This document shows, one piece after another, positions 828-39,531 of a stretch of DNA of 40,401 nucleotides. Made by a program: the position numbers and the translations under genes. The DNA comes from a virus: the IMG/VR virus record IMGVR_UViG_3300037264_000908, positions 1-40,401 of that record. The stretch is one strand, 5' to 3'. Numbering within the stretch: the first letter of the stretch is position 1; each line of letters starts with the position of its first letter. Below the pieces are notes generated by a model. The model saw only the letters and a list, made by a program, of their open reading frames with translations, was not told the origin of the DNA and ran no database searches.

Positions 828-1304
828 TTAATCCGTCTCACTCATTGTTTCGATTTCACCTTTGTCTTGCGTTCCAGTTTTGTCCCTAAATGTTCTTAAT
901 GTGTAATCACCGGCAAAACATTCCCTACACCTAGTAAAATAAAATGCCCCATCAAATGCACTACCAATCTTTTCTATTTTTCCACATCGTTCACAAATAG
1001 AATTAGATAAAAGTTGTGCAAAATCTGTTACTGCCTGTATTCGTTTTCCTCGTTCTTCGTCAAATTCTTTATATTCTGCCATATTTGAAAAGTATATTTT
1101 CAATACGCCTTGTGATGAACGAATTTGATGTACTCTTAGAGGAAACACACATCCATAACTGATATTAAAAATCATCATAAGTGTTTTATCTAACAACCAA
1201 TACCAACCATCACCACATTCTATCCCACTACCAGTTGTACCAAATAACGTTTCTAACAAATTTGGATTTTTATTTTGTAGTTCTATTTCATGTTCCTTTG
1301 TCAT
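828..1304 (-). CDS. Hypothetical phage protein with Cys pairs
   Basis: This 158-residue protein has an N-terminal GIECGDGWYWLL motif (about 27-38). It also has two Cys pairs, CERC (104-107) and CREC (126-129), spaced like a treble-clef or zinc-ribbon site. The combination of an xCGDGWY start and a C-terminal Cys4 site is recurrent in small phage proteins of unknown function, so I infer it is a full-length member that probably binds zinc. The start codon overlaps the end of the upstream HNH gene by 17 bases, and the stop is immediately followed by the ATG of the frameshifted gene, so translation is probably coupled. No enzymatic role can be assigned. Confidence 0.7.
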   Translation of the reverse strand: MTKEHEIELQNKNPNLLETLFGTTGSGIECGDGWYWLLDKTLMMIFNISYGCVFPLRVHQIRSSQGVLKIYFSNMAEYKEFDEERGKRIQAVTDFAQLLSNSICERCGKIEKIGSAFDGAFYFTRCRECFAGDYTLRTFRDKTGTQDKGEIETMSETD

Positions 1305-2028
1305 TCTTATGATGCCCTTGTTGTTGTAATTTTATATTTTTTATCCAATTAACAAAATCAACATAAATCATATTTGATTTGGCTCGATTACATATCTTAC
1401 AACACGATACACAATTCTTATATACATAACCACCATTCGTATTTTTTCGGTCTATACCATTATATAAAAACTTCCCACCACGAGCGACCACTTTAATGTT
1501 GGTCGGTGGAGAACCACAATAAAAACAATTATTCAATACCATTTTATAAAACTGTTTTTTTGATAAATGAAAGGGTATTTTTCTAAAATTAGATTGGCAT
1601 TTATATGATATATATAATCTATTTTTAGCAATTTCATTTGGATTTTTTTTGTATCTAATATTTTTTTTAACCACACCACCACATAATTTAACACATTTTA
1701 ATGCAGTATAAACACTGGTGTTGTATTTTATAGAAAGTTTTTCACTAGATATTCCAGAATCGTAATCAAGTTTTATTCTTAACCGTTCTGGTTCAGTTAA
1801 AATAGAAAGTTTTCGTTTCTTTTGCTTTCCAATGCTTCCATTTTTTGAACAACCCACACACGATTCGGAATATTTCTTTTTTAGATTTGATGATATAACA
1901 TTACTTTCGGTACCACATTCACATCTACATAAATATAATAATTTCCCCTCATCAGTCGAACCATTTTTACGTAAAACTGTCCATTTTCCAAATTTTTCTC
2001 CATCATTAAATAACAATTTGTTACTCAT
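1288..2028 (-). CDS. HNH homing endonuclease-like protein
   Basis: This 246-residue protein has a mosaic build typical of phage HNH homing endonucleases. Residues 10-60 form a GEKFGKWTVL...CRCECG...SCVGC Cys-rich DNA-binding domain seen in front of many phage HNH nucleases. Residues about 78-120 look like a helix-turn-helix/NUMOD-type segment. The HNH-type nuclease lies at about 165-230: CFYC (168-171), NGIDRKNTNGGY (190-201) and CCKICNRAKSNM (209-220). I do not see a canonical His in the first HNH position, so activity is not certain. ATG at 2028 has GGAG 7 bases upstream. The leader forms a hairpin that pairs with the start codon (see separate entry). It is free-standing and not inside an intein or intron, and it sits just before a gene it overlaps by 17 bases. 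Confidence 0.85.
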   Translation of the reverse strand: MSNKLLFNDGEKFGKWTVLRKNGSTDEGKLLYLCRCECGTESNVISSNLKKKYSESCVGCSKNGSIGKQKKRKLSILTEPERLRIKLDYDSGISSEKLSIKYNTSVYTALKCVKLCGGVVKKNIRYKKNPNEIAKNRLYISYKCQSNFRKIPFHLSKKQFYKMVLNNCFYCGSPPTNIKVVARGGKFLYNGIDRKNTNGGYVYKNCVSCCKICNRAKSNMIYVDFVNWIKNIKLQQQGHHKNDKGT

Positions 2029-2582: not shown

Positions 2583-3317
2583 TTATCCTTCTTTTATTTC
2601 TGTAAGTATTTTTATAATTAAAGCACACACATGAATCTCTTTGTCTATTGCAAATGTATCTGTAGATTGTGCGTCGGCTATCAACAAAATGCACGGCGCA
2701 ACATGTCCTTTTGCATAATCCTCTACTTCATCATACAGCAACTTATACAGGTCTGTGTAGTCCTGTATCTGGGAGTCTGCTAGAAGTTGTCGAATATTCT
2801 TAAATGCATTAACTTTCGTATCTGTTTTGAGATGTTCAATGACTTTGAGTTTGTAATCATTTGCTATCATTGCATACACATCTACTTTCAACACACCATT
2901 AACAGTTTGGCGTTGTACAGAATTGATAATTCGCCTAATGTCAGGATACCCACTGTTTATAATGGTAACAATATCTTCTGGTTTATATTCCGTATTTTCT
3001 TGTGATAGAATTTCCGACACCCTTACTGCAACGTCTTTTTTGGATGGTGGAATTACCTTAAAAACCTGGCAACGACTTTGTATTGGGTCTATAATGCGTT
3101 CACTGTGGTTGCATGTTAATATAAATCTCGTGTGCCGAGAAAACGTTTCCATGATATTTCGTAGTGCGGCTTGTGCATTGGGTGATAGGAAATCGCAATT
3201 GTGCGTTAATATACCAGTTTTCCCAATCATAAAATTATTATTTTCTTTTACCGTTAAATCATAAACAACACGTTTTTTATTCAATTTCGTGATTTTTGTA
3301 ACTTTTAATAACTTCAT
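2583..3317 (-). CDS. 44: Clamp loader large subunit, C-terminal half with split-intein C fragment
   Basis: Residues 1-40 are an intein C fragment: block F (VYDLTVKENNNFMIG, about 18-32) and block G ending GILTHN before Cys41, the +1 extein nucleophile. Residues 41-244 (204 aa) continue gp44 from just after Walker B. They include DFLSPNAQAALRN, sensor-1-like FILTCN and the clamp-loader signature SRC (81-83). The N-terminal half is encoded at 4315-4947. Trans-splicing would join ...LIILDE to CDFLSPN... and give about 310 residues, close to T4 gp44 (319). The product is the ATPase that opens the gp45 clamp. The ATG at 3317 has AAGG 8 bases upstream and overlaps the endonuclease ORF by 41 bases in another frame, which suggests coupled translation. 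Confidence 0.93.
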   Translation of the reverse strand: MKLLKVTKITKLNKKRVVYDLTVKENNNFMIGKTGILTHNCDFLSPNAQAALRNIMETFSRHTRFILTCNHSERIIDPIQSRCQVFKVIPPSKKDVAVRVSEILSQENTEYKPEDIVTIINSGYPDIRRIINSVQRQTVNGVLKVDVYAMIANDYKLKVIEHLKTDTKVNAFKNIRQLLADSQIQDYTDLYKLLYDEVEDYAKGHVAPCILLIADAQSTDTFAIDKEIHVCALIIKILTEIKEG

Positions 3318-4257: not shown

Positions 4258-4307
4258 AATCAATTCTCCCATTTGATATAAATATCATTATTTTGAGAAT
4301 TGTGCAT
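4252..4307 (-). promoter_or_regulatory. RBS-sequestering hairpin with internal TATTTATA promoter motif
   Basis: The perfect 8-base inverted repeat CAATTCTC (4261-4268) / GAGAATTG (4295-4302) is extended, across a 4-base bulge, by ATGCA (4252-4256) / TGCAT (4303-4307). In the minus-strand RNA the 3' side contains three bases of the SD GGGAG (4270-4266) and the UG of the start codon (4257-4255). The 26-base loop holds TATTTATA on the coding strand (4277-4284), a candidate late promoter. RNA reading through from upstream would fold and hide the ribosome site. RNA starting at the internal motif would lack the 5' arm. Confidence 0.65.
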
Positions 4308-4314
4308 AAAATAA

Positions 4315-4947
4315 TCACTCTGTGGTAACAATTTCCATATAGTCGCCTTTGATAATGTCTTTTGATGTTACTACAATCGTTTCATTTGATTTGTTTTTTA
4401 CATACCATTTGTGGGTATCTGTACAAATCACCCGTTCCCCATTCTCAAATTCAAATTCATAAACCCCGGCCTCTCCGATTTCATGTAAATCAAACGGTCT
4501 CCACTGTATTTGATTCAGTTTTATATTAAAAGATTTGACTAAATCGGTTTTTTCATTTAAATCTTTAATTTGAATGGTCTGTTCTTTGCCATTTCGTAAT
4601 ATCCACACCAGCGTGGTCTCGTCTAAACACTCATCCAGTATGATAAGTTTGAATGACTTAAATCCCATTGTACTTGCAAAGTCTGTAATTTTATTTCTCA
4701 TAATATCAACACTGTTCTCACTTGACGCATTGATATACATGTAATCACAGTCCGTGTTAGTTGCAAGAATTTTTGCAAGAGATGTTTTTCCTGTGCCTGC
4801 AGGTCCTGACAGTAACAAATGTGGAATATCACCACTCTCAAGATAAATTTTGACCTTTGCTTTGATGAGGTCGTTTCCTATAAATTCGTCAAGTGTTTTT
4901 GGTCTATATTTCTCAACAAGGAGCGTGTTACTTTTGTTCATCAACAT
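4315..4947 (-). CDS. 44: Clamp loader large subunit, N-terminal half with split-intein N fragment
   Basis: Residues 1-106 are the N-terminal half of the gp44/RFC-type clamp loader: LVEKYRPKTLDEFIG, Walker A GPAGTGKT (48-55) and Walker B LIILDE (101-106). At residue 107 the sequence becomes an intein N fragment of 104 residues. It starts with Cys (CLDETTLVWIL, block A) and includes block B GERVICTDTHKWYV with the TxxH motif, then ends at a stop. The matching C fragment is at 2583-3317. The ATPase site is therefore incomplete until trans-splicing. The start is ATG at 4947, because GGAGG lies 6 bases upstream. It overlaps the previous gene by 20 bases. Confidence 0.95.
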   Translation of the reverse strand: MLMNKSNTLLVEKYRPKTLDEFIGNDLIKAKVKIYLESGDIPHLLLSGPAGTGKTSLAKILATNTDCDYMYINASSENSVDIMRNKITDFASTMGFKSFKLIILDECLDETTLVWILRNGKEQTIQIKDLNEKTDLVKSFNIKLNQIQWRPFDLHEIGEAGVYEFEFENGERVICTDTHKWYVKNKSNETIVVTSKDIIKGDYMEIVTTE

Positions 4948-6801: not shown

Positions 6802-7707
6802 TTAAAATTGAAAAAACTTCGATAGATTCTTTTCTGATTCTGATGGTTGTGACCATTTCATTGCACTATACAAATCCATAAGTTTACTCCATAACTCTCG
6901 TTCAAAAATTTTGTTTGCGTCAATATACTGTTCAACAAACTTTGTTACTTCTGGCGGGTCGTCATATCCACGAAACGCTATTTCTTCTAGTCCCAATGGA
7001 TTTTGTTTCAGATATGCCCACTTAATCTTATCACTTTCTACTAATGGAACATACTGTTTATCAAGTCCCATATATTTCAAGAAGTTGTTGTAATTGATAG
7101 CCGCTTTCACATGTGCAGGCGTTCCTTTAATTGCATTGCCAAATGGTGATTTTGTTTTTCCTAACATCACGTTGGTACTATGTTTTGTGTATTTACCAAT
7201 ACCTTTAACACTTGTAGGTTTTGCAACCTCATCAATTCCTAGTTGTAATAGGTTCTTTTTGAATGATAAAACTTTTTCATCAATGTCCACTTTTGTTGCA
7301 TTTTTCAAAATGTCTTCCAACGACTGTTTAAGAAACTTTCTAAACGCTTTTGGAAAATTTGAACGGACGGAATCTATTCCTTTTACATCAATTTTGTTAA
7401 CTTGAATACCATTCTCGTTAATAATCCATAACACGTATCGTTTCTTTGCAATCCACAACCCCGATTTTGCAATCACTTCTTGCTTTATATGAAACCTATG
7501 TTCATCTATATTCAAAAATCGTTTCGCAAATAAATCAAATGATTTGTTTAGGAATAATTGAACTTCATTCGCAATTTCCTCGGTTGCCTTTTCCATACTC
7601 GGCGAGTCATTGATGCTTATATTAGGATATCGTTTATTAATTATAGGTAACGCAGAAACATATACAGAATCCGTGTCCATGTATATGATATGGTCAATTG
7701 GTTTCAT
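6802..7707 (-). CDS. 43: Family B DNA polymerase, C-terminal part (gp43B)
   Basis: This 301-residue protein carries the C-terminal part of the T4-type replicative polymerase. Motif C YMDTDSVY is at residues 9-16 and supplies a catalytic Asp. KSGLWIAKKRYV (palm/thumb, KKRY motif) and the thumb follow. The extreme C-terminus KNLSKFFQF resembles the clamp-binding peptide of such polymerases. I choose ATG at 7707 (MKPIDHIIYMDTD), because AAAGGA lies about 10 bases upstream; ATG at 7728 would add 7 residues but has no SD. The N-terminal part is the gene immediately upstream. No intein fragment is present at either end, so the parts must associate non-covalently. Confidence 0.92.
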   Translation of the reverse strand: MKPIDHIIYMDTDSVYVSALPIINKRYPNISINDSPSMEKATEEIANEVQLFLNKSFDLFAKRFLNIDEHRFHIKQEVIAKSGLWIAKKRYVLWIINENGIQVNKIDVKGIDSVRSNFPKAFRKFLKQSLEDILKNATKVDIDEKVLSFKKNLLQLGIDEVAKPTSVKGIGKYTKHSTNVMLGKTKSPFGNAIKGTPAHVKAAINYNNFLKYMGLDKQYVPLVESDKIKWAYLKQNPLGLEEIAFRGYDDPPEVTKFVEQYIDANKIFERELWSKLMDLYSAMKWSQPSESEKNLSKFFQF

Positions 7708-7742
7708 ATAACAAATTTTCCTTTTCATTATAACGATAAAAA

Positions 7743-9407
7743 TTAATTCGATAATATTTTGTTATAATAGTGATTTACCATTTGTTCGCAATATTTTATG
7801 ATTGCTACCCCAGTAGTGGTTGTAGCTTCCGCACAATCTCTATCATAAAACCTACAGGTGGGAAGACCAAGCACACCATATACACTATTCAATAGAATTT
7901 TTTGCACATGTTGTCGCATTCGGAAATATTCGAATTTGTCTGTATCACCACTCTTTCCAAACTTTGTCATAAGATTTCTATATTCTACACGTTCTTTAAA
8001 CCACGCGTCAAGAATTGATGGAATCAGACCGGTATTCTCCATTTTATACATCACGCCATTAACTGCAATTGAGTATTTATGTTGTTCAACAAAATCTCGT
8101 ACTTCATCAGTTGTAATTTTTCGTGGGTGTTTTTCGTTCACCTGCATCATGTGCGTTGTAGATTTTCCCATCACAAATGTTTCAGGTACCCAATCTTCTA
8201 TCTTTCCTATTTTTGTTTCTGGTGATATATTCAACGACATGATAACAGACGGATACAACGAAGTCATATCTAAATCATAAATCCAAAAATAACGACCGGG
8301 AATCGGTTCTTTTACATATGCACCAGTAAACGATTGTACACCATCTTCTTCTGCGTCCTCATTGCTCTTATATTTTTTATTTGGAGCAACAATACCTAAT
8401 CGTTTCAAATATGTTAAAATTGCACCATCAATAACTCGTGATGAATAATACACATCTTCATATGGAACGTGCGCTCTGTGACAAATAGATTTTACCAAAT
8501 CCAACAATTTCATTTTCTCGTCAATCTTCTTAACAATGATAACGTCGCCCATGTTGTATTCAATAAACTTTTTGATATCATTCTTAAACAGATTATCAAG
8601 CGTTCCACCATATTGCAATTTTCCATGATTGACTTCTTTGCGCCCAATTGCGTCCAAATTATATGAGGACTCTTGTGTGTACGTAAACTTTTTATATAGA
8701 CCAAGATAGTCTAATACCGCCACCCCGGCTATCTTATACATCTGTTTGTAGTCATTCCACAATATCTTTTGAATCGGACTCAACATTAACGAAATCTCTT
8801 TGCCTAACACAACGGTAGCCCGATGGTATAAATACGGAATATCGAATCGCTCTACGTTCCAACCGCTTACAATTGTTGGTTGTATTTCTGTCCATTTAAG
8901 AAAAAATTTACTCAACAATTCTTCTTCTGTCTGAAAGAATTCAACAACCGTATCGTCTTCTAATACAAAATTTTCATATTTCAGTGTTTTGTCGAGGACA
9001 TATACCCCTTGCATTTTAGCCGCTTTATCGTACCACGCAATAGACAAGATTTCGTTTGTTGCAGATTGAACATCAGGAAAACCATTCTCTGATGAAACTT
9101 CAATGTCGAATATCAATTCTTTGTGACCTATTGATACTTCGTCCGAATCTGTATATTCATCAATAAGAATACGAGTTAATACAGGAATATCTGATTCAAA
9201 CACCAACCCATTTTCTTCATCTTGTCTTGACCACCTCTTGACTTTTTTTAGCGGTTCGCCATAAACAGAAAATACAGTGCTTACACTCGATTTGGATTTG
9301 ACATATGCATAAGGCGTGTGTTTGAATGTATAATGGCCTTTTTGTGGATTATCGTCCCAAATGTGTATTTCGTTATTTTCTCTATCGTAATATGCGTTTG
9401 TATAAAT
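7743..9407 (-). CDS. 43: Family B DNA polymerase, N-terminal part (gp43A), ATT start
   Basis: With the start used here the product has 554 residues. It has exonuclease motifs (FDIEV about 100-104, SGWNVERFDIPYL 181-193, YNMGDVIIV 284-292), polymerase motif A DLDMTSLYPS (378-387) and motif B KILLNSVYG (503-511). It ends ...HYYNKILSN, just before where motif C should follow; motif C is in the next gene. The reading frame stays open upstream of the first usual start (TTG at 9206) and encodes conserved N-terminal polymerase sequence (YTNAYYDRENN, VFSVYGEPLKKVKRW). The only well-placed start is ATT at 9407-9405, 8 bases after a perfect AGGAG (9420-9416) that overlaps the methyltransferase stop. 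No ATG, GTG or TTG lies between. Confidence 0.9.
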   Translation of the reverse strand: MYTNAYYDRENNEIHIWDDNPQKGHYTFKHTPYAYVKSKSSVSTVFSVYGEPLKKVKRWSRQDEENGLVFESDIPVLTRILIDEYTDSDEVSIGHKELIFDIEVSSENGFPDVQSATNEILSIAWYDKAAKMQGVYVLDKTLKYENFVLEDDTVVEFFQTEEELLSKFFLKWTEIQPTIVSGWNVERFDIPYLYHRATVVLGKEISLMLSPIQKILWNDYKQMYKIAGVAVLDYLGLYKKFTYTQESSYNLDAIGRKEVNHGKLQYGGTLDNLFKNDIKKFIEYNMGDVIIVKKIDEKMKLLDLVKSICHRAHVPYEDVYYSSRVIDGAILTYLKRLGIVAPNKKYKSNEDAEEDGVQSFTGAYVKEPIPGRYFWIYDLDMTSLYPSVIMSLNISPETKIGKIEDWVPETFVMGKSTTHMMQVNEKHPRKITTDEVRDFVEQHKYSIAVNGVMYKMENTGLIPSILDAWFKERVEYRNLMTKFGKSGDTDKFEYFRMRQHVQKILLNSVYGVLGLPTCRFYDRDCAEATTTTGVAIIKYCEQMVNHYYNKILSN

Positions 9408-20935: not shown

Positions 20936-22165
20936 TCATTCTTCAAAACCAGAAAACTTATCAACAGGGCCAACTTTTACTCTTTCACCCAATTGAAGTT
21001 CATTGTTGCCATTGTTTAATTCATCATATTTTTTCTTCAATAATTTGCGAACATACAAATTACCTTTATCCATTTGTTGTTTTGTATCTTTACCAGATGA
21101 TGTACTTTCTTCAAAAATTTGAATACTACCCATTGATGTATTTATTTTCGATGGAAATGTCATACCATCTGGTCCGAATCTATTTTTTACAATGTGCCAC
21201 CGTCCTGTACCTGCAACTTTATCAGTAATTTTTCTTGACAGTGACATGATAAAATCTGCAACCATTATTTTACTGAACGCTTCTGCCACATTGTCTGCGC
21301 TAATGATATCTTGTTCCATACTCGAACGGTTTGATTGTGTTGCCGTCCACACTGGTATCGCACACTCACCTGCAAACGCTCGTAAATCTTCATAAATATT
21401 TTCTATTGTATGACGAACTTCTTTCATTGCAGTCACACTACGAAGTAAATCTGCATAATCCACAATGACCAAATTGGGTTTGAAACCTGTCATAATACAT
21501 TTGTCAAAATGGGCTCGAATCGTATTGACCGTTGCACCCTTTGGTGGATAGTATTTTACAATCAAATTACCTGAAACGTTGTCAATCGCTTTGACTATAT
21601 CTTCTTTGTGATATTTGAGATTTTGACCGGATATTCCACTGAGATGTGCGTCATAACGTTTACCAACATAATTTTCGTTCAACTCCATTGTATAATGAAC
21701 AACATTCAACCCACGTTTCATTGCATGAGCGCCAACTGTTACTAATGACCAAGAATTGTGTGATAGTATTTTGTTACTATAATAACAATTTACATCTTTA
21801 ACAGAAATATCATATAGAATTTCTTTTTTGTTTTTCACTATCTTCTTTTTAACTTTTGTTATCCCCACATCCGTTTCTACAAAATCACCAACATGTATAT
21901 TTTCTACAAATTCCCAATCACCATTTTTAACCAATCTATGTTTTTTTGAAGTTTTTAATGTTTTATTATTAGAAAAATACAACATTGTCGTTTCTTGTAA
22001 TTCTGTTCTAAATAAATTAACAATTTCATTATAACCATATGGAGTTTTTACTCTTAAACTAAAATTCGGAATTTTATTTGAATGTTCTTTGTTTTCTATT
22101 TTCAGATTATCAAATAAGTCTTTTATGGCCACCGTTTTACTAATTGTTCTTGTTATATATTTCAT
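20936..22165 (-). CDS. 41: Replicative helicase gp41, C-terminal half with long split-intein C fragment
   Basis: Residues 1-137 are an intein C fragment of unusual length. It contains KTPYGYNEIVNLF, a block B-like TLKTSKKHRLV (about 69-79), FVENIHVGDFVETD, block F ILYDISVKDVNCYYSN and block G KILSHN, followed by Ser138 as the +1 residue. Residues 138-409 (272 aa) are the RecA-like motor of the DnaB/gp41 helicase: the Ser completing Walker A, VVHYTMELNE, LVIVDYADLLR (Walker B) and TATQSNRS. The N-terminal half is at 23146-23868, and the spliced protein would have about 479 residues (T4 gp41 has 475). Its ATG overlaps the endonuclease stop as ATGA. AAGGA lies about 10 bases upstream. Confidence 0.93.
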   Translation of the reverse strand: MKYITRTISKTVAIKDLFDNLKIENKEHSNKIPNFSLRVKTPYGYNEIVNLFRTELQETTMLYFSNNKTLKTSKKHRLVKNGDWEFVENIHVGDFVETDVGITKVKKKIVKNKKEILYDISVKDVNCYYSNKILSHNSWSLVTVGAHAMKRGLNVVHYTMELNENYVGKRYDAHLSGISGQNLKYHKEDIVKAIDNVSGNLIVKYYPPKGATVNTIRAHFDKCIMTGFKPNLVIVDYADLLRSVTAMKEVRHTIENIYEDLRAFAGECAIPVWTATQSNRSSMEQDIISADNVAEAFSKIMVADFIMSLSRKITDKVAGTGRWHIVKNRFGPDGMTFPSKINTSMGSIQIFEESTSSGKDTKQQMDKGNLYVRKLLKKKYDELNNGNNELQLGERVKVGPVDKFSGFEE

Positions 22166-23076
22166 TTCAAAAAATTCCTTATTTTTTCAATCATCAACTC
22201 TCTTTTATTTTTCCAATCATATTCCCATATGATTAACACGCGATAACCACGACTTTTGAAATATTTTATTCTGGAACTATCTCGTTTCCAAATATCGCGT
22301 ATTTTTATTCCAAATTTATTTACATCAGAAGATTTAAAATATATAGGGTTTGCGTGCCAAAAATCTCCAAAAAATTCTATGATTTTTTTGCTAACAATCA
22401 TGTCAGGAATTTTATTTAGAATCGTTGGGTTCGCTATTACATTTGGATTTATATTTTCTTTTATATAAAGAAATAAATTATTCTCTCCCTTACTTCTAAT
22501 TCCTGATGGGAATCTTTGTATAAATTTATCTACACCGATATGATTAACCACCTCAATCATTTTTTGTGATATTTTTTGCTTCGATTTTATTGTATGATGT
22601 TTACCAAAAAATTTTCTTGACCTCTCAGAATCTAATCTGGCACGTTTTGATATTTTTTGTTCGGCTTCGATTTTCGAGTAGCCCCTATTTATCCAATATT
22701 CAATACAACGTGTTCTAAATTTTCTCCGTTCTAGTTTTGAATATTTATTCATAAATTTCTTTTGGTCTCTTTTAGCATTTTCTGACAATATTTTTTTTGC
22801 TGATGCTTTATCATATCCTTTAGCAATCCAATATTCTACACATCTGTTAGAATATTTTCTTTGTTTCTTTTTAAAATTTTCATTTGACCACAACTGTTCT
22901 AATGTTTTTTTTATTTTTTGAATACTGTCTATAGATAGTGGTGGTTGTAAATGAACAATATTTGTTTTATAAATTTTCTTATAATCTGATACAGATATTT
23001 TATGTACACGTGTTATGTGAGAAATTAATGATTTTAATTTATTTTTATTACATATTTTACAAGTTAACATCTTCAT
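22162..23076 (-). CDS. Free-standing Vsr/EDxHD-type homing endonuclease between gp41 halves
   Basis: This 304-residue protein begins with a zinc-finger-like CKIC...HITRVH (6-25). It then has two tandem copies of a CxEYWIxxGYxKxxAxxxxSxxA unit (79-101 and 124-146) and a NUMOD3-like KSKQKISQKM (164-173). The C-terminal nuclease domain has KKIIEFFGDFWHANP (E234, D238, H241), RIKYFKSRGYRVLIIWEYDW and an upstream SKGE (195-198). This is the Vsr-like pattern of the EDxHD homing endonucleases (I-Bth0305I type), described with fractured genes and split inteins. The start ATG at 23076 has GGAG 7 bases upstream. The stop overlaps the intein-C gene as ATGA. Confidence 0.9.
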   Translation of the reverse strand: MKMLTCKICNKNKLKSLISHITRVHKISVSDYKKIYKTNIVHLQPPLSIDSIQKIKKTLEQLWSNENFKKKQRKYSNRCVEYWIAKGYDKASAKKILSENAKRDQKKFMNKYSKLERRKFRTRCIEYWINRGYSKIEAEQKISKRARLDSERSRKFFGKHHTIKSKQKISQKMIEVVNHIGVDKFIQRFPSGIRSKGENNLFLYIKENINPNVIANPTILNKIPDMIVSKKIIEFFGDFWHANPIYFKSSDVNKFGIKIRDIWKRDSSRIKYFKSRGYRVLIIWEYDWKNKRELMIEKIRNFLK

Positions 23077-23115
23077 AATAATTCTCCATTTATTATAAAT
23101 ATAAAGAATTATTAT
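23075..23115 (-). promoter_or_regulatory. RBS-sequestering hairpin with internal TATTTATA promoter motif
   Basis: A perfect 11-base inverted repeat is formed by ATAATAATTCT (23075-23085) and AGAATTATTAT (23105-23115). In minus-strand RNA the 3' arm includes the AG of the SD GGAG (23087-23084) and the AU of the start AUG (23076-23074). The loop carries TATTTATA on the coding strand (23094-23101). Read-through RNA would block initiation; RNA starting from the internal motif would not. Confidence 0.7.
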
Positions 23116-23145: not shown

Positions 23146-23868
23146 TTACGATGATAAATCCCACGGGTCATACCATTTTAGTATCCCGTCTACTTCTATG
23201 CCAATTTGTTCATATTGAATATCAATTTTGGTATTTGGGCCAACACATTTTCCAATACCTGGCGGGGCCATAATTACAAATAAATCTCCACCAGAAGAAC
23301 CACCTTGTGTGATATCATTAATCACATCCCACGGGGTAGGTACACACACTCGTGCAAGTTCACTCATTCGTTCTTCTAATGAATCTTTGTATATGTGTCC
23401 TATGTTTCTATCAGAACCGGCCTTAAACGCATTATTCATTCGAATACGCATTTGGTCATATTGTCTACCTTTAATCAAACCAACTGAATCATAAACAGCA
23501 GATACAAGTTCTTGATTTTTACAAAATTCAATTGCATTGTCTTTAATGAATTGTAATTCGCTCGTATCAGAATGTTTGTACGCATCTTTCAATGTCTCGA
23601 TAACCGATTTTTGCAATTCCTCTACAGTTATACCTTTCACCATAACCGCCATAACATCAACGGGTGGAGTAGATTTATATTCGATAAAATATTTGTAAAT
23701 CTGTTCGACAATCCATTGAGCCGCTTCGTCTTCAAAATATTCTTTTTTCATGATATCAATAATTTGTTGCAAAAACACCTTATCAAACAATAAAAGTGCA
23801 ATCAGTTTTATTTTGAAACCGCGGCCAAGACTATCAAAACTTTCTATGTTATTTACATCAACAATCAT
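23146..23868 (-). CDS. 41: Replicative helicase gp41, N-terminal half with short split-intein N fragment
   Basis: Residues 1-207 are the N-terminal half of the DnaB-like T4 gp41 helicase, ending in an incomplete Walker A, FVIMAPPGIGK. At Cys208 the sequence turns into an intein N fragment of only 33 residues (CVGPNTKIDIQYEQIG...), which contains block A and then stops. The Ser that completes Walker A is the +1 residue in the downstream gene. The start is ATG at 23868 (MIVDVNNIESF), with AAGGA about 8 bases upstream; a longer reading from 23898 would overlap the nuclease gene and has no site. The ATPase can only form after trans-splicing. Confidence 0.92.
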   Translation of the reverse strand: MIVDVNNIESFDSLGRGFKIKLIALLLFDKVFLQQIIDIMKKEYFEDEAAQWIVEQIYKYFIEYKSTPPVDVMAVMVKGITVEELQKSVIETLKDAYKHSDTSELQFIKDNAIEFCKNQELVSAVYDSVGLIKGRQYDQMRIRMNNAFKAGSDRNIGHIYKDSLEERMSELARVCVPTPWDVINDITQGGSSGGDLFVIMAPPGIGKCVGPNTKIDIQYEQIGIEVDGILKWYDPWDLSS

Positions 23869-23869
23869 A

Positions 23870-24940
23870 TTACATTTCCTTATGTGACAAAGCCGCAAAA
23901 CGGTCTAGTACTAAAAACTTACTTCGTAACCAAAAATCAAAATTTGGTATGCTTGACCACAATTTATCTTCGTTGAATAATCGTAAAATGTCCATTTTTT
24001 TCAATGTGTTAATTGGTTGTCTCAATTTTTCAAAGATTTTGGTTTTTGTTGTAGCAGAAATGTCTGAATCTGACAATTGCATCAATGCATGATTTCGTTT
24101 TATGATATCACCACTTTCATATACACGTTTGTACACAACATCATTTTCGTCCAAGTGGTCTTTTGCATAATTCAATACATCATCTATTGTAACAGATACG
24201 TTTTCGAACAACAATGGAAATTTCTTCAATAGCGTTTTTTCACCCACCCCACGCACACCTTTGATATTGTCCGATTTGTCACCCTTACTATTAATTGCTC
24301 GATACAAACACATGTTTTCGGCCGGGACACCATAATCTTCTTTTACTGCTTCTTTTGTATATATCTTTTTCTTCATTGGATTCCACACCTCAACATTATC
24401 AGAAACCAATTGTAGAAAATCTTTGTCAGTTGACATAATAAATGTTTTGTTTGTACCGTCCAACATGCCCGTAATGTATGCAATCACATCATCCGCTTCA
24501 ACGTTATCAACCGCAAACATGGTTACGGGCAAACAACTAAGATATTGCACCAATCTTAACATTTGTTTGTGCATGGATTCTTTTTCATGTTCGAGGTTTT
24601 GAAAAATATCCAATCGGCTAAACTTCAATGATGGTGACCTGCGTTCCTTGTATTCTGGGTATAGTTTCTTTCTACGCAACGAACCACCTTTACCATCAAA
24701 TACAACAATCACTCGGGTAGGTTTCATTACTTCAATTGCATACCCAAGTGATTTTAAGAAGCCACCAAGTCCACCAACATGAAATCCATCTTCATTGACA
24801 ACAGGAATAACTATAAAACAACTGATAAACCGATTGAGACCGTCCACTATGAGTACACGAGAATTTATGGAATCTTTGCTTGGAACTTCATTTAGATTCT
24901 CTTTTAACTGAGAAAAAAGTTCCATATATTTCTTTTTCAT
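23870..24940 (-). CDS. rnh: 5'-3' exonuclease / RNase H-like (FEN family)
   Basis: With the start at 24940 this has 356 residues. It belongs to the FEN/T4 RNase H family, which removes RNA primers and 5' flaps on the lagging strand. Visible motifs: VLIVDGLNRFI, RVIVVFDGKGGSLRRKKLYPEYKERR, VEADDVIAYI, FIMSTDKDFLQLV, and the H3TH DNA-binding region KGDKSDNIKGVRGVGEKTLLKKF. These give the cluster of Asp residues that bind two metals. ATG at 24940 has AGAGG about 9 bases upstream and overlaps the recA end; ATG at 24964 has no SD. It sits between recA and gp41. Confidence 0.93.
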   Translation of the reverse strand: MKKKYMELFSQLKENLNEVPSKDSINSRVLIVDGLNRFISCFIVIPVVNEDGFHVGGLGGFLKSLGYAIEVMKPTRVIVVFDGKGGSLRRKKLYPEYKERRSPSLKFSRLDIFQNLEHEKESMHKQMLRLVQYLSCLPVTMFAVDNVEADDVIAYITGMLDGTNKTFIMSTDKDFLQLVSDNVEVWNPMKKKIYTKEAVKEDYGVPAENMCLYRAINSKGDKSDNIKGVRGVGEKTLLKKFPLLFENVSVTIDDVLNYAKDHLDENDVVYKRVYESGDIIKRNHALMQLSDSDISATTKTKIFEKLRQPINTLKKMDILRLFNEDKLWSSIPNFDFWLRSKFLVLDRFAALSHKEM

Positions 24941-38920: not shown

Positions 38921-39253
38921 TTATCTTGGGTCTTCCAATCCTAATATGTCTATTATCTTCTTTTGATTTGACGGGCTTGTTTTTAAATAAACCCCACATC
39001 CAATTTGCCAACCTCTTTTGTATATAGACGCAGATTTTTCATCAATAGAAACGTCATATCCTGCGCTTTTTAATCTCTTTACAACTCTGTTAGCATTTTG
39101 TATTGCCTTTTGTTGAAATTTCATAACATCAGATACTTTAACATCCATTTGTGTCACTTCAACAAACAATTTACCGTCTAGCGCATATAGGCCATTTATT
39201 TCTTCATTTCGTTTAAGTTCATTTTCTTTCAATAAAGATGCCAATTGTTTCAT
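38921..39253 (-). CDS. Hypothetical tail-region protein
   Basis: This 110-residue protein starts MKQLASLLKENELKRNEEINGLYALDGKLFVEV and has an alternating strand/helix build, with VVKRLKSAGYDVSIDEKSASIYKRGWQIGCGVYLKTSP. The start ATG at 39253 has GAGGAG 7 bases upstream; the longer reading to 39295 lacks one. Upstream lie a terminator hairpin and a candidate late promoter, so it may be the first gene of a late transcript that continues into the tape measure. No family is recognised. Confidence 0.7.
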   Translation of the reverse strand: MKQLASLLKENELKRNEEINGLYALDGKLFVEVTQMDVKVSDVMKFQQKAIQNANRVVKRLKSAGYDVSIDEKSASIYKRGWQIGCGVYLKTSPSNQKKIIDILGLEDPR

Positions 39254-39281
39254 ATCAATTCTCCTCGCGTGGATATAAAAA

Positions 39282-39330
39282 TAGGACTTTATCAACTATA
39301 AATATTGAATAGTTACAAAATAAAGTCCTA
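39282..39330 (-). terminator. Intrinsic terminator with candidate promoter in its loop
   Basis: The coding-strand RNA has an 11-base perfect stem UAGGACUUUAU (39330-39320) / AUAAAGUCCUA (39292-39282) with an inner 6-base stem AACUAU (39314-39309) / AUAGUU (39299-39294). It is followed at once by UUUUU. This is a strong intrinsic terminator whose stem begins in the stop codon of the upstream gene. TATTTATA (39304-39297) lies in the apical part, so a new transcript could start inside the terminator. Confidence 0.75.
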
Positions 39331-39531
39331 CTTTGGTCGTACGGCTGGTCTTTGTATTGTAGATGGCGTTGTCTTTTTACCTATTTTCCCCACTTCAGAT
39401 TTCTTTCGTTCTAACCATCGTTCCAGAAGTTTTACATAATATTTACGCAAGTATACCGGCAGATTATATACGTCCGAGTACGTAAACGCCCCTTCTGATG
39501 AAATGATAATAGCAAATAATTCTTCATGAAT
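39328..39531 (-). CDS. Small baseplate-hub associated protein
   Basis: This small basic protein follows gp26 and shows KIHEELFAIIISSEGAFTYSDVYNLPVYLRKYYVKLLERWLERKK, the pattern of the small proteins that follow gp26-like genes in T4-like phages (YxLPxxLRxYY). With ATT at 39531 as start it has 67 residues; this places AGAGGA, at the end of gp26, 10 bases upstream. The only usual start in frame is TTG at 39570, which has no SD and would add 13 residues within the gp26 overlap. Start choice is uncertain. It may act in hub assembly. Confidence 0.65.
   Translation of the reverse strand: MHEELFAIIISSEGAFTYSDVYNLPVYLRKYYVKLLERWLERKKSEVGKIGKKTTPSTIQRPAVRPK

What the first reader, a model, noticed from the sequence alone, without database searches (positions are those of the whole stretch)
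23075..23115. I-TevI-like translational lock on the gp41-locus nuclease
Seen: an 11-base perfect inverted repeat covers two bases of the SD and two of the AUG, with TATTTATA in the loop. Known: in T4, I-TevI is silenced in early and middle transcripts by a hairpin over its ribosome site and is expressed from a late promoter inside that hairpin. Inference: the same logic works here, on an unrelated nuclease. Chance of an 11-base repeat exactly at the start and enclosing the recurrent motif is low.
Basis: partly seen in the sequence, partly recalled or inferred. Interest (0 to 1): 0.85.

Follow-up and report, generated by a model that had tools for sequence, protein, structure and literature searches.

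The report
Hairpin lock on split-intein nuclease gene
A phage gene for a DNA-cutting enzyme, wedged between the two halves of a split replication gene, starts inside an RNA hairpin that should keep it silent in long early messages and let it be made only from a late promoter inside the hairpin, and the same arrangement recurs on several different nucleases in related phages.

Summary
An exact 11-bp inverted repeat (23075-23085/23105-23115) pairs two bases of the Shine-Dalgarno (SD) and two of the AUG, with ATATTTATA in the loop; it is the strongest RBS-covering stem among 37 gene starts in the window. (1) A homologous locus (L011, protein 34-38% identical) keeps an 11-bp stem in the same register with five consecutive double compensatory changes. 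(2) ATATTTATA is a strand-specific upstream motif; in two related contigs it precedes tail sheath, tail tube, portal and baseplate genes, so it is late-promoter-like. (3) A second nuclease in the window (gp44 locus) has the same hairpin and motif. (4) In a ranking of 456 gene starts the five strongest motif-bearing RBS hairpins all precede nucleases. All five such loci in these phages with a non-overlapping nuclease (gp41 twice, gp44, uvsX twice) have the lock. The principle is known (I-TevI, mobE, segB, T4 gene e); the split-intein setting, non-T4 motif and recurrence appear new. Transcript starts and translation are unmeasured.

The parts
23105..23115 (-). 5' arm of the hairpin (ATAATAATTCT), present only in read-through transcripts
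   Evidence: five of 11 pairs doubly compensated in homologue L011
23094..23102 (-). ATATTTATA, late-promoter-like motif in the loop
   Evidence: top sense-specific 8-mer upstream of genes in the window and in relative G005; precedes structural genes in G005/G008
23088..23088 (-). predicted late transcript start, using T4 late-promoter geometry (motif at -13 to -6); inferred, uncertain by about 2 nt
   Evidence: inference; the same motif-to-SD spacing occurs before the tail tube gene of G008
23084..23087 (-). Shine-Dalgarno GGAG of the nuclease
   Evidence: sequence; unpaired probability 0.01 in read-through RNA, 0.24 in predicted late RNA
23075..23085 (-). 3' arm of the hairpin (AGAATTATTAT), overlapping SD and AUG
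22162..23076 (-). EDxHD/Vsr-type homing-endonuclease-like gene, 304 aa, N-terminal zinc-ribbon-like motif
   Evidence: phrog_22677 3.4e-11, phrog_13076 endonuclease 3.1e-6; 3-sequence profile matches Vsr structures at 1.9e-4
23146..23898 (-). gp41 helicase N-extein plus 33-aa IntN (23146-23247: C|VGPNTK...DLSS*)
   Evidence: phrog_19 2.3e-21; translation
20936..22165 (-). IntC (137 aa, 21755-22165) plus gp41 C-extein; start overlaps the nuclease stop by 4 nt and has its own AAGGA
   Evidence: phrog_19 4.3e-42; intein splicing domain; gp41-1 intein 6qaz match at residues 39-137, E 0.005; junction
4258..4307 (-). second lock: hairpin CAATTCTC/GAGAATTG (4295-4302 and 4261-4268) with TATTTATA 4277-4284 in the loop
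3277..4257 (-). second nuclease gene, between split-intein halves of gp44
   Evidence: phrog_15427 endonuclease 3.6e-17
4315..4947 (-). gp44 clamp loader N-extein plus IntN (IntN about 4315-4626)
   Evidence: phrog_168 7.4e-36; translation
2583..3317 (-). IntC (40 aa) plus gp44 C-extein
   Evidence: phrog_168 7.3e-38; translation ...GILTHN|CDFLSP

Best explanation
This is a translational lock with a built-in late key on a homing-endonuclease-like gene sitting between the split-intein halves of gp41. Read-through transcripts of the replication operon contain both arms, so the SD and AUG are buried, and gp41-N/IntN and IntC/gp41-C are made without the nuclease; gp41-C has its own, almost unstructured start. 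Late in infection transcription starts at ATATTTATA in the loop; that transcript begins around the SD, lacks the 5' arm and is translatable. Shown here by sequence: the hairpin, its compensatory conservation, the strand-specific motif and the genes it precedes in relatives, and recurrence on other nucleases including the gp44 locus. Inferred: hairpin formation in vivo, the transcript start, early silence and late translation, and the homing activity of the enzyme.
For: Exact 11-bp stem over SD and AUG (fold z -3.6; 19/3000 shuffles, 2/3000 with motif). In L011 the same locus has an 11-bp stem in the same register, with 5 consecutive pairs changed on both sides. SD unpaired probability 0.01 in read-through RNA against 0.24 in predicted late RNA. 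ATATTTAT is 6:0 sense:antisense in window upstreams and 12:0 in G005; in G005/G008 it precedes tail sheath, tail tube, baseplate hub, portal and head-tail adaptor genes. Ranking of 456 gene starts: the top 5 motif-bearing RBS hairpins all precede nucleases; 4/5 nucleases against 1/450 other genes, Fisher 1.4e-8 (hairpins of these members were already seen when the list was drawn up, so this test is partly post hoc). Five of five split-intein fractured loci with a non-overlapping nuclease have the lock. The same promoter-SD module precedes a tail tube gene without the 5' arm, and a GIY-YIG nuclease with it. T4 control: the same script finds e, I-TevI, I-TevII, soc and segB. C-half starts are among the least structured in the window.
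Against: No RNA or protein data. The motif is TATTTATA, not T4's TATAAATA, and gp55 was not found in the window or the ATATTTATA relatives. In L011 the loop motif has become TATTTTTA, and that phage shows no ATATTTATA signal. The predicted late leader is only about 12 nt and its SD is still partly paired in the model. The stem is AU-rich, and the gp44 copy alone is weak (141/3000). Several related nucleases lack a hairpin. The word 'late' rests on which genes the motif precedes.
Confidence: 0.76

Rival explanations
1. The hairpin is a constitutive translational damper: it lowers nuclease yield at all times and the loop motif is AT-rich coincidence, without a late promoter switch.
For: L011 keeps the stem with a changed motif; some related nucleases (L242 group, L247) have RBS hairpins without a recognisable late motif; L011 and L257 appear to use weak AUA/AUU starts.
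Against: The motif is enclosed in both window locks, in two G005 nuclease hairpins and in one G001 nuclease hairpin; L229 carries T4-type TATAAATA in its hairpin and its phage encodes gp55; the same motif-SD module serves a late tail gene.
Confidence: 0.14
2. The inverted repeat acts at DNA level, for example as an operator for a dimeric regulator or the nuclease itself, and the RNA stem is a by-product.
For: I-TevI binds an operator over its own late promoter (PMC2988022); compensatory changes also keep a palindrome.
Against: The arms differ between loci while pairing is kept and the 3' arm covers the SD in each; similarity between the upstream sequence and the rejoined gp41 insertion site is no better than shuffles (13/20).
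Confidence: 0.05
3. Chance: an AU-rich stem and an AT-rich octamer falling together.
For: The start region is 15% GC; per-gene chance of such a stem is about 0.6%.
Against: Double compensatory changes in a 34-38% identical homologue, a second copy in the window, and the nuclease bias over 456 starts.
Confidence: 0.03

Closest known systems
mobE of Aeromonas phage Aeh1 (free-standing HNH homing endonuclease embedded in nrdA)
   Same: Free-standing nuclease inside an essential early gene, SD sequestered by a hairpin, similar promoter arrangement (PMC2988022; PMC3014915)
   Different: Different nuclease family; from own knowledge the nrdA halves carry no intein, whereas here the gene halves carry a split intein
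I-TevI, I-TevII, I-TevIII of T4
   Same: RBS hairpin in early/middle RNA and promoter placed so that late RNA lacks the 5' arm
   Different: Intron-encoded; GIY-YIG or HNH; TATAAATA promoter; I-TevI also has an autorepression operator, none found here
T4 gene e (lysozyme)
   Same: TATAAATA within an RBS hairpin, so late RNA lacks the 5' arm; detected by the same script
   Different: Not a mobile element; T4-type promoter
Fractured genes with split inteins and an EDxHD/Vsr endonuclease (Dassa et al. 2009)
   Same: Split-intein halves of replication genes flanking an EDxHD/Vsr nuclease gene
   Different: Paper not held, known from memory and as cited in PMC12350094; I know of no hairpin or late-promoter lock described for these loci, and no held paper joins the three terms
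Aeromonas phage Aes123 polB locus (JN377899)
   Same: VSR endonuclease between split-intein halves of a replication gene
   Different: Nuclease start overlaps the upstream ORF and has no hairpin
seg43 of Aeromonas phage 25
   Same: Stable hairpin just upstream of a nuclease RBS without covering it, as in relative L283
   Different: The window hairpin does cover the RBS

Membership tests
I-TevI/mobE-type late-locked homing endonuclease gene | Hairpin in read-through RNA sequesters the SD/AUG | tested here: met
   Exact stem, fold, SD unpaired 0.01, compensatory changes; prediction only
I-TevI/mobE-type late-locked homing endonuclease gene | Late promoter lies so that its transcript lacks the 5' arm | tested here: inconclusive
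   Late-promoter-like motif sits in the loop; start not mapped
I-TevI/mobE-type late-locked homing endonuclease gene | Translation only from late transcripts | not testable with these tools
   Needs infection RNA/protein data
I-TevI/mobE-type late-locked homing endonuclease gene | Product is a site-specific nuclease of a homing type | tested here: inconclusive
   EDxHD/Vsr-like by profile; activity untested
I-TevI-type autorepression | Operator resembling the homing site over the late promoter | tested here: not met
   Best 20-mer 13/20, typical of shuffles, with 40 bp of extein on each side
T4 gp55-dependent late promoter | TATAAATA -10 element and gp55 sigma factor in the phage | tested here: not met
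   Motif is ATATTTATA; phrog_234 absent from the window and from G001-G008; the window is a 40-kb fragment and most relatives are incomplete
Fractured gene with split intein (Dassa type) | Gene halves ending/starting with IntN and IntC, nuclease gene in between | tested here: met
   gp41 GIGK|C...* and ...SHN|SWSL; gp41-1 intein match 0.005
Fractured gene with split intein (Dassa type) | Nuclease of the EDxHD/Vsr family | tested here: met
   EFFGDFWH motif, profile match to 1vsr/1cw0/1odg for gp41; the gp44 nuclease is a different family
Split intein | Halves trans-splice | not testable with these tools
   Not measured

The most novel reading that the evidence does not exclude
Late hairpin locks are a general solution for nucleases residing in split-intein fractured genes: the lock lets the polycistronic early message supply both intein-bearing halves while the nuclease stays silent. 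The lock is a swappable promoter-RBS cassette carried by unrelated nucleases (EDxHD, GIY-YIG, others), driven by a late promoter class other than T4's.
Probability: 0.5. Interest if true: 0.75.

Novelty: new variant of a known kind. Interest (0 to 1): 0.62.

Why it matters
It links two subjects that the held literature treats apart: late translational locks on T4 homing endonucleases and split-intein fractured genes. If true it explains how an invading nuclease can sit inside an essential early replication operon without being expressed early, shows the same lock on several nuclease families, and gives a sequence signature (late motif plus RBS hairpin) for spotting such genes. It also points to an ATATTTATA late-type promoter in phages without a recognisable gp55.

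Tried and rejected
T4-type TATAAATA as the late motif: the sense-strand motif is TATTTATA; TATAAATA is its reverse complement. I-TevI-like operator: no excess similarity between the upstream region and the rejoined insertion site (the first run used only the left flank). gp55 in relatives: only the L229 phage, and weakly G009. DNA pattern TATTTATANNAAATGGN{0,1}AGAA in IMG/VR: 107 stretches, mostly chance or late genes without hairpins. Relatives of the gp44 nuclease and of gp44-N/IntN in IMG/VR, and of the gp41 nuclease in bacterial genomes: none found. MAFFT misplaced the loop gap between window and L011, so the pair comparison was made in fixed register by script. Rfam: no intron or other RNA at these loci, only a tRNA next to the L257 nuclease, so the idea of a group I intron in L257 was dropped. 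Terminator reading of the hairpin rejected: no U-run follows the 3' arm. Dassa 2009 and the mobE hairpin paper are not held.

Full report
Observation. The minus strand at 23115-23074 reads ATAATAATTCT TTATATTTATAATAAATGG AGAATTATTAT G. The arms are exact over 11 bp; the 3' arm includes the AG of the GGAG Shine-Dalgarno and the AU of the AUG. RNA folding gives -12.1 kcal/mol, z -3.6. With the SD and start kept fixed and the 46 upstream bases shuffled, an equal stem appears in 19/3000 cases and one with the motif inside in 2/3000. Of 37 scored starts in the window, this is the strongest RBS-covering stem and the gp44-locus nuclease is second.

Setting. The gene (22162-23076, 304 aa) is phrog_22677-like (3.4e-11) with an endonuclease family at 3.1e-6. 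A 3-sequence profile matches the Vsr endonuclease structures at 1.9e-4, and the EFFGDFWH motif is invariant apart from one F/C change. The gene lies between gp41-N ending GIGK|CVGPNTK...DLSS* (33-aa IntN) and IntC-gp41-C starting at 22165 and reading ...ILSHN|SWSL. Intein character is supported by Pfam Intein_splicing 2.9e-6 (below its curated cut-off) and by the gp41-1 intein structure 6qaz at E 0.005. This is the 'fractured gene' arrangement. The C-half has its own AAGGA and is nearly unstructured (-3.2 kcal/mol), so it can be made from early RNA without translating the nuclease (inference).

Homologue. In L011 (contig IMGVR_UViG_3300025030_000051, G001) the same gp41 site holds a nuclease 34-38% identical, a 47-aa IntN, and the hairpin ATTTGTTTTCT...AGAAAACAAAT in the same register over SD and start. 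Pair by pair, 6 of 11 are unchanged and 5 consecutive pairs differ on both sides while still pairing. The stem is equalled in 4/3000 shuffles. The start there appears to be AUA, since no AUG/GUG/UUG lies in frame for 13 codons.

Motif. ATATTTAT is the top sense-specific octamer in intergenic upstreams: 6:0 sense:antisense in the window and 12:0 in relative G005, with a cluster 22-31 nt before the start. In G005 and G008 it precedes tail sheath (phrog_23, 7.6e-75), tail tube, baseplate hub, portal and head-tail adaptor genes. In the window no recognised replication gene start has it within 60 nt. The tail tube gene of G008 has TATTTATAATAAATGGAG, the same motif-SD spacing as the gp41 nuclease, without the 5' arm. 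G001 does not show the ATATTTATA signal, and gp55 was found only in G010 (L229's phage) and weakly in G009. The word 'late' therefore rests on the genes the motif precedes.

Recurrence. The window's gp44 clamp-loader gene is also fractured by a split intein with a different nuclease between its halves, and that nuclease has an 8-bp RBS hairpin with TATTTATA in the loop. All 456 scored gene starts of the window and six related contigs were ranked by RBS-covering stem; among those with the motif enclosed, the five strongest all precede nucleases. Two of these, in G001 and G005, turned out to lie between split-intein halves of uvsX. So five of five fractured loci with a non-overlapping nuclease in these phages carry the lock. 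Excluding the nuclease found only through its hairpin, 4 of 5 nucleases against 1 of 450 other genes have motif plus stem at or below -11 (Fisher 1.4e-8). The nuclease list was settled after hairpins had been seen on its members, so this p value is descriptive.

Wider relatives. L229 has an 11-bp hairpin with T4-type TATAAATA and its phage encodes gp55. PA5oct and Vibrio phage 32 homologues have 8- and 10-bp hairpins. A GIY-YIG nuclease after a tRNA in L257 carries the same loop cassette with a 10-pair stem (one G-U) and an apparent AUU start. Counter-examples exist: several related nucleases have none; the gp41 loci L010, L012-L017, L051 and L052 and the Aes123 polB locus overlap the upstream ORF instead. 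L283, a uvsX locus homologous to G005's, has a 16-bp hairpin just upstream of the RBS that does not cover it, like seg43 of phage 25.

Positive control. The same script on T4 with TATAAATA picks out e, I-TevI, I-TevII, soc and segB, which PMC2988022 and PMC3014915 describe as under RBS-hairpin control. T4 also shows that other late genes can have such hairpins, so the feature is not unique to nucleases.

Mechanism. SD unpaired probability in read-through RNA: 0.01 (gp41), 0.25 (gp44), 0.01 (L011), 0.00 (G005 uvsX), 0.04 (G005 phrog_3339). In predicted late RNA: 0.24, 0.58, 0.32, 0.07, 0.32, with far weaker folds. With T4 geometry the late start would be T23088, giving a leader of about 12 nt that lacks the 5' arm. 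Every kinetic step is inferred.

Novelty. The principle is known. The new elements are the split-intein setting, the non-T4 motif, the recurrence over several nuclease families, and the shared cassette. No held paper contains 'split intein', 'homing endonuclease' and 'late promoter' together; most subscription literature was not searchable.

Noticed in passing
window 1288-2028 (-): A third nuclease (endonuclease VII/HNH-like, phrog_1035 2.7e-14) whose AUG is paired in a local stem while its SD lies in the loop; no RBS-covering stem by the main score.
   Followed up: partly
window 6802-7728 and 7743-9206 (-): gp43 DNA polymerase is split into two adjacent ORFs (...KILSN* and MKRKICYM...), with no intein seen.
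   Followed up: no
window 39278-39334: Inverted repeat AAAATAGGACTTTAT/ATAAAGTCCTACTTT (I7) enclosing TATTTATA; terminator- or promoter-like, upstream of the 110-aa ORF starting at 39253.
   Followed up: no
L011 4995-4997; L257 1064-1066: Apparent AUA and AUU start codons of hairpin-locked nucleases at the position where the window has AUG; possibly a second brake on expression.
   Followed up: partly
L202 13617-13898; L194 5495-6232; L283 1-190: Very short IntN pieces (about 13-16 residues) on uvsX fractured genes, at two different insertion sites.
   Followed up: partly
L193 162-3188: Portal gene of G005 carries an HNH-bearing insertion (phrog_213 portal with phrog_59 HNH inside), intein-like.
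   Followed up: no
L011 3729-4181: TnpB-like N-terminal fragment just upstream of gp41-N (by eye).
   Followed up: no
L257 387-974: Another zinc-finger nuclease-like ORF directly upstream of the locked GIY-YIG gene, its end overlapping the tRNA.
   Followed up: no
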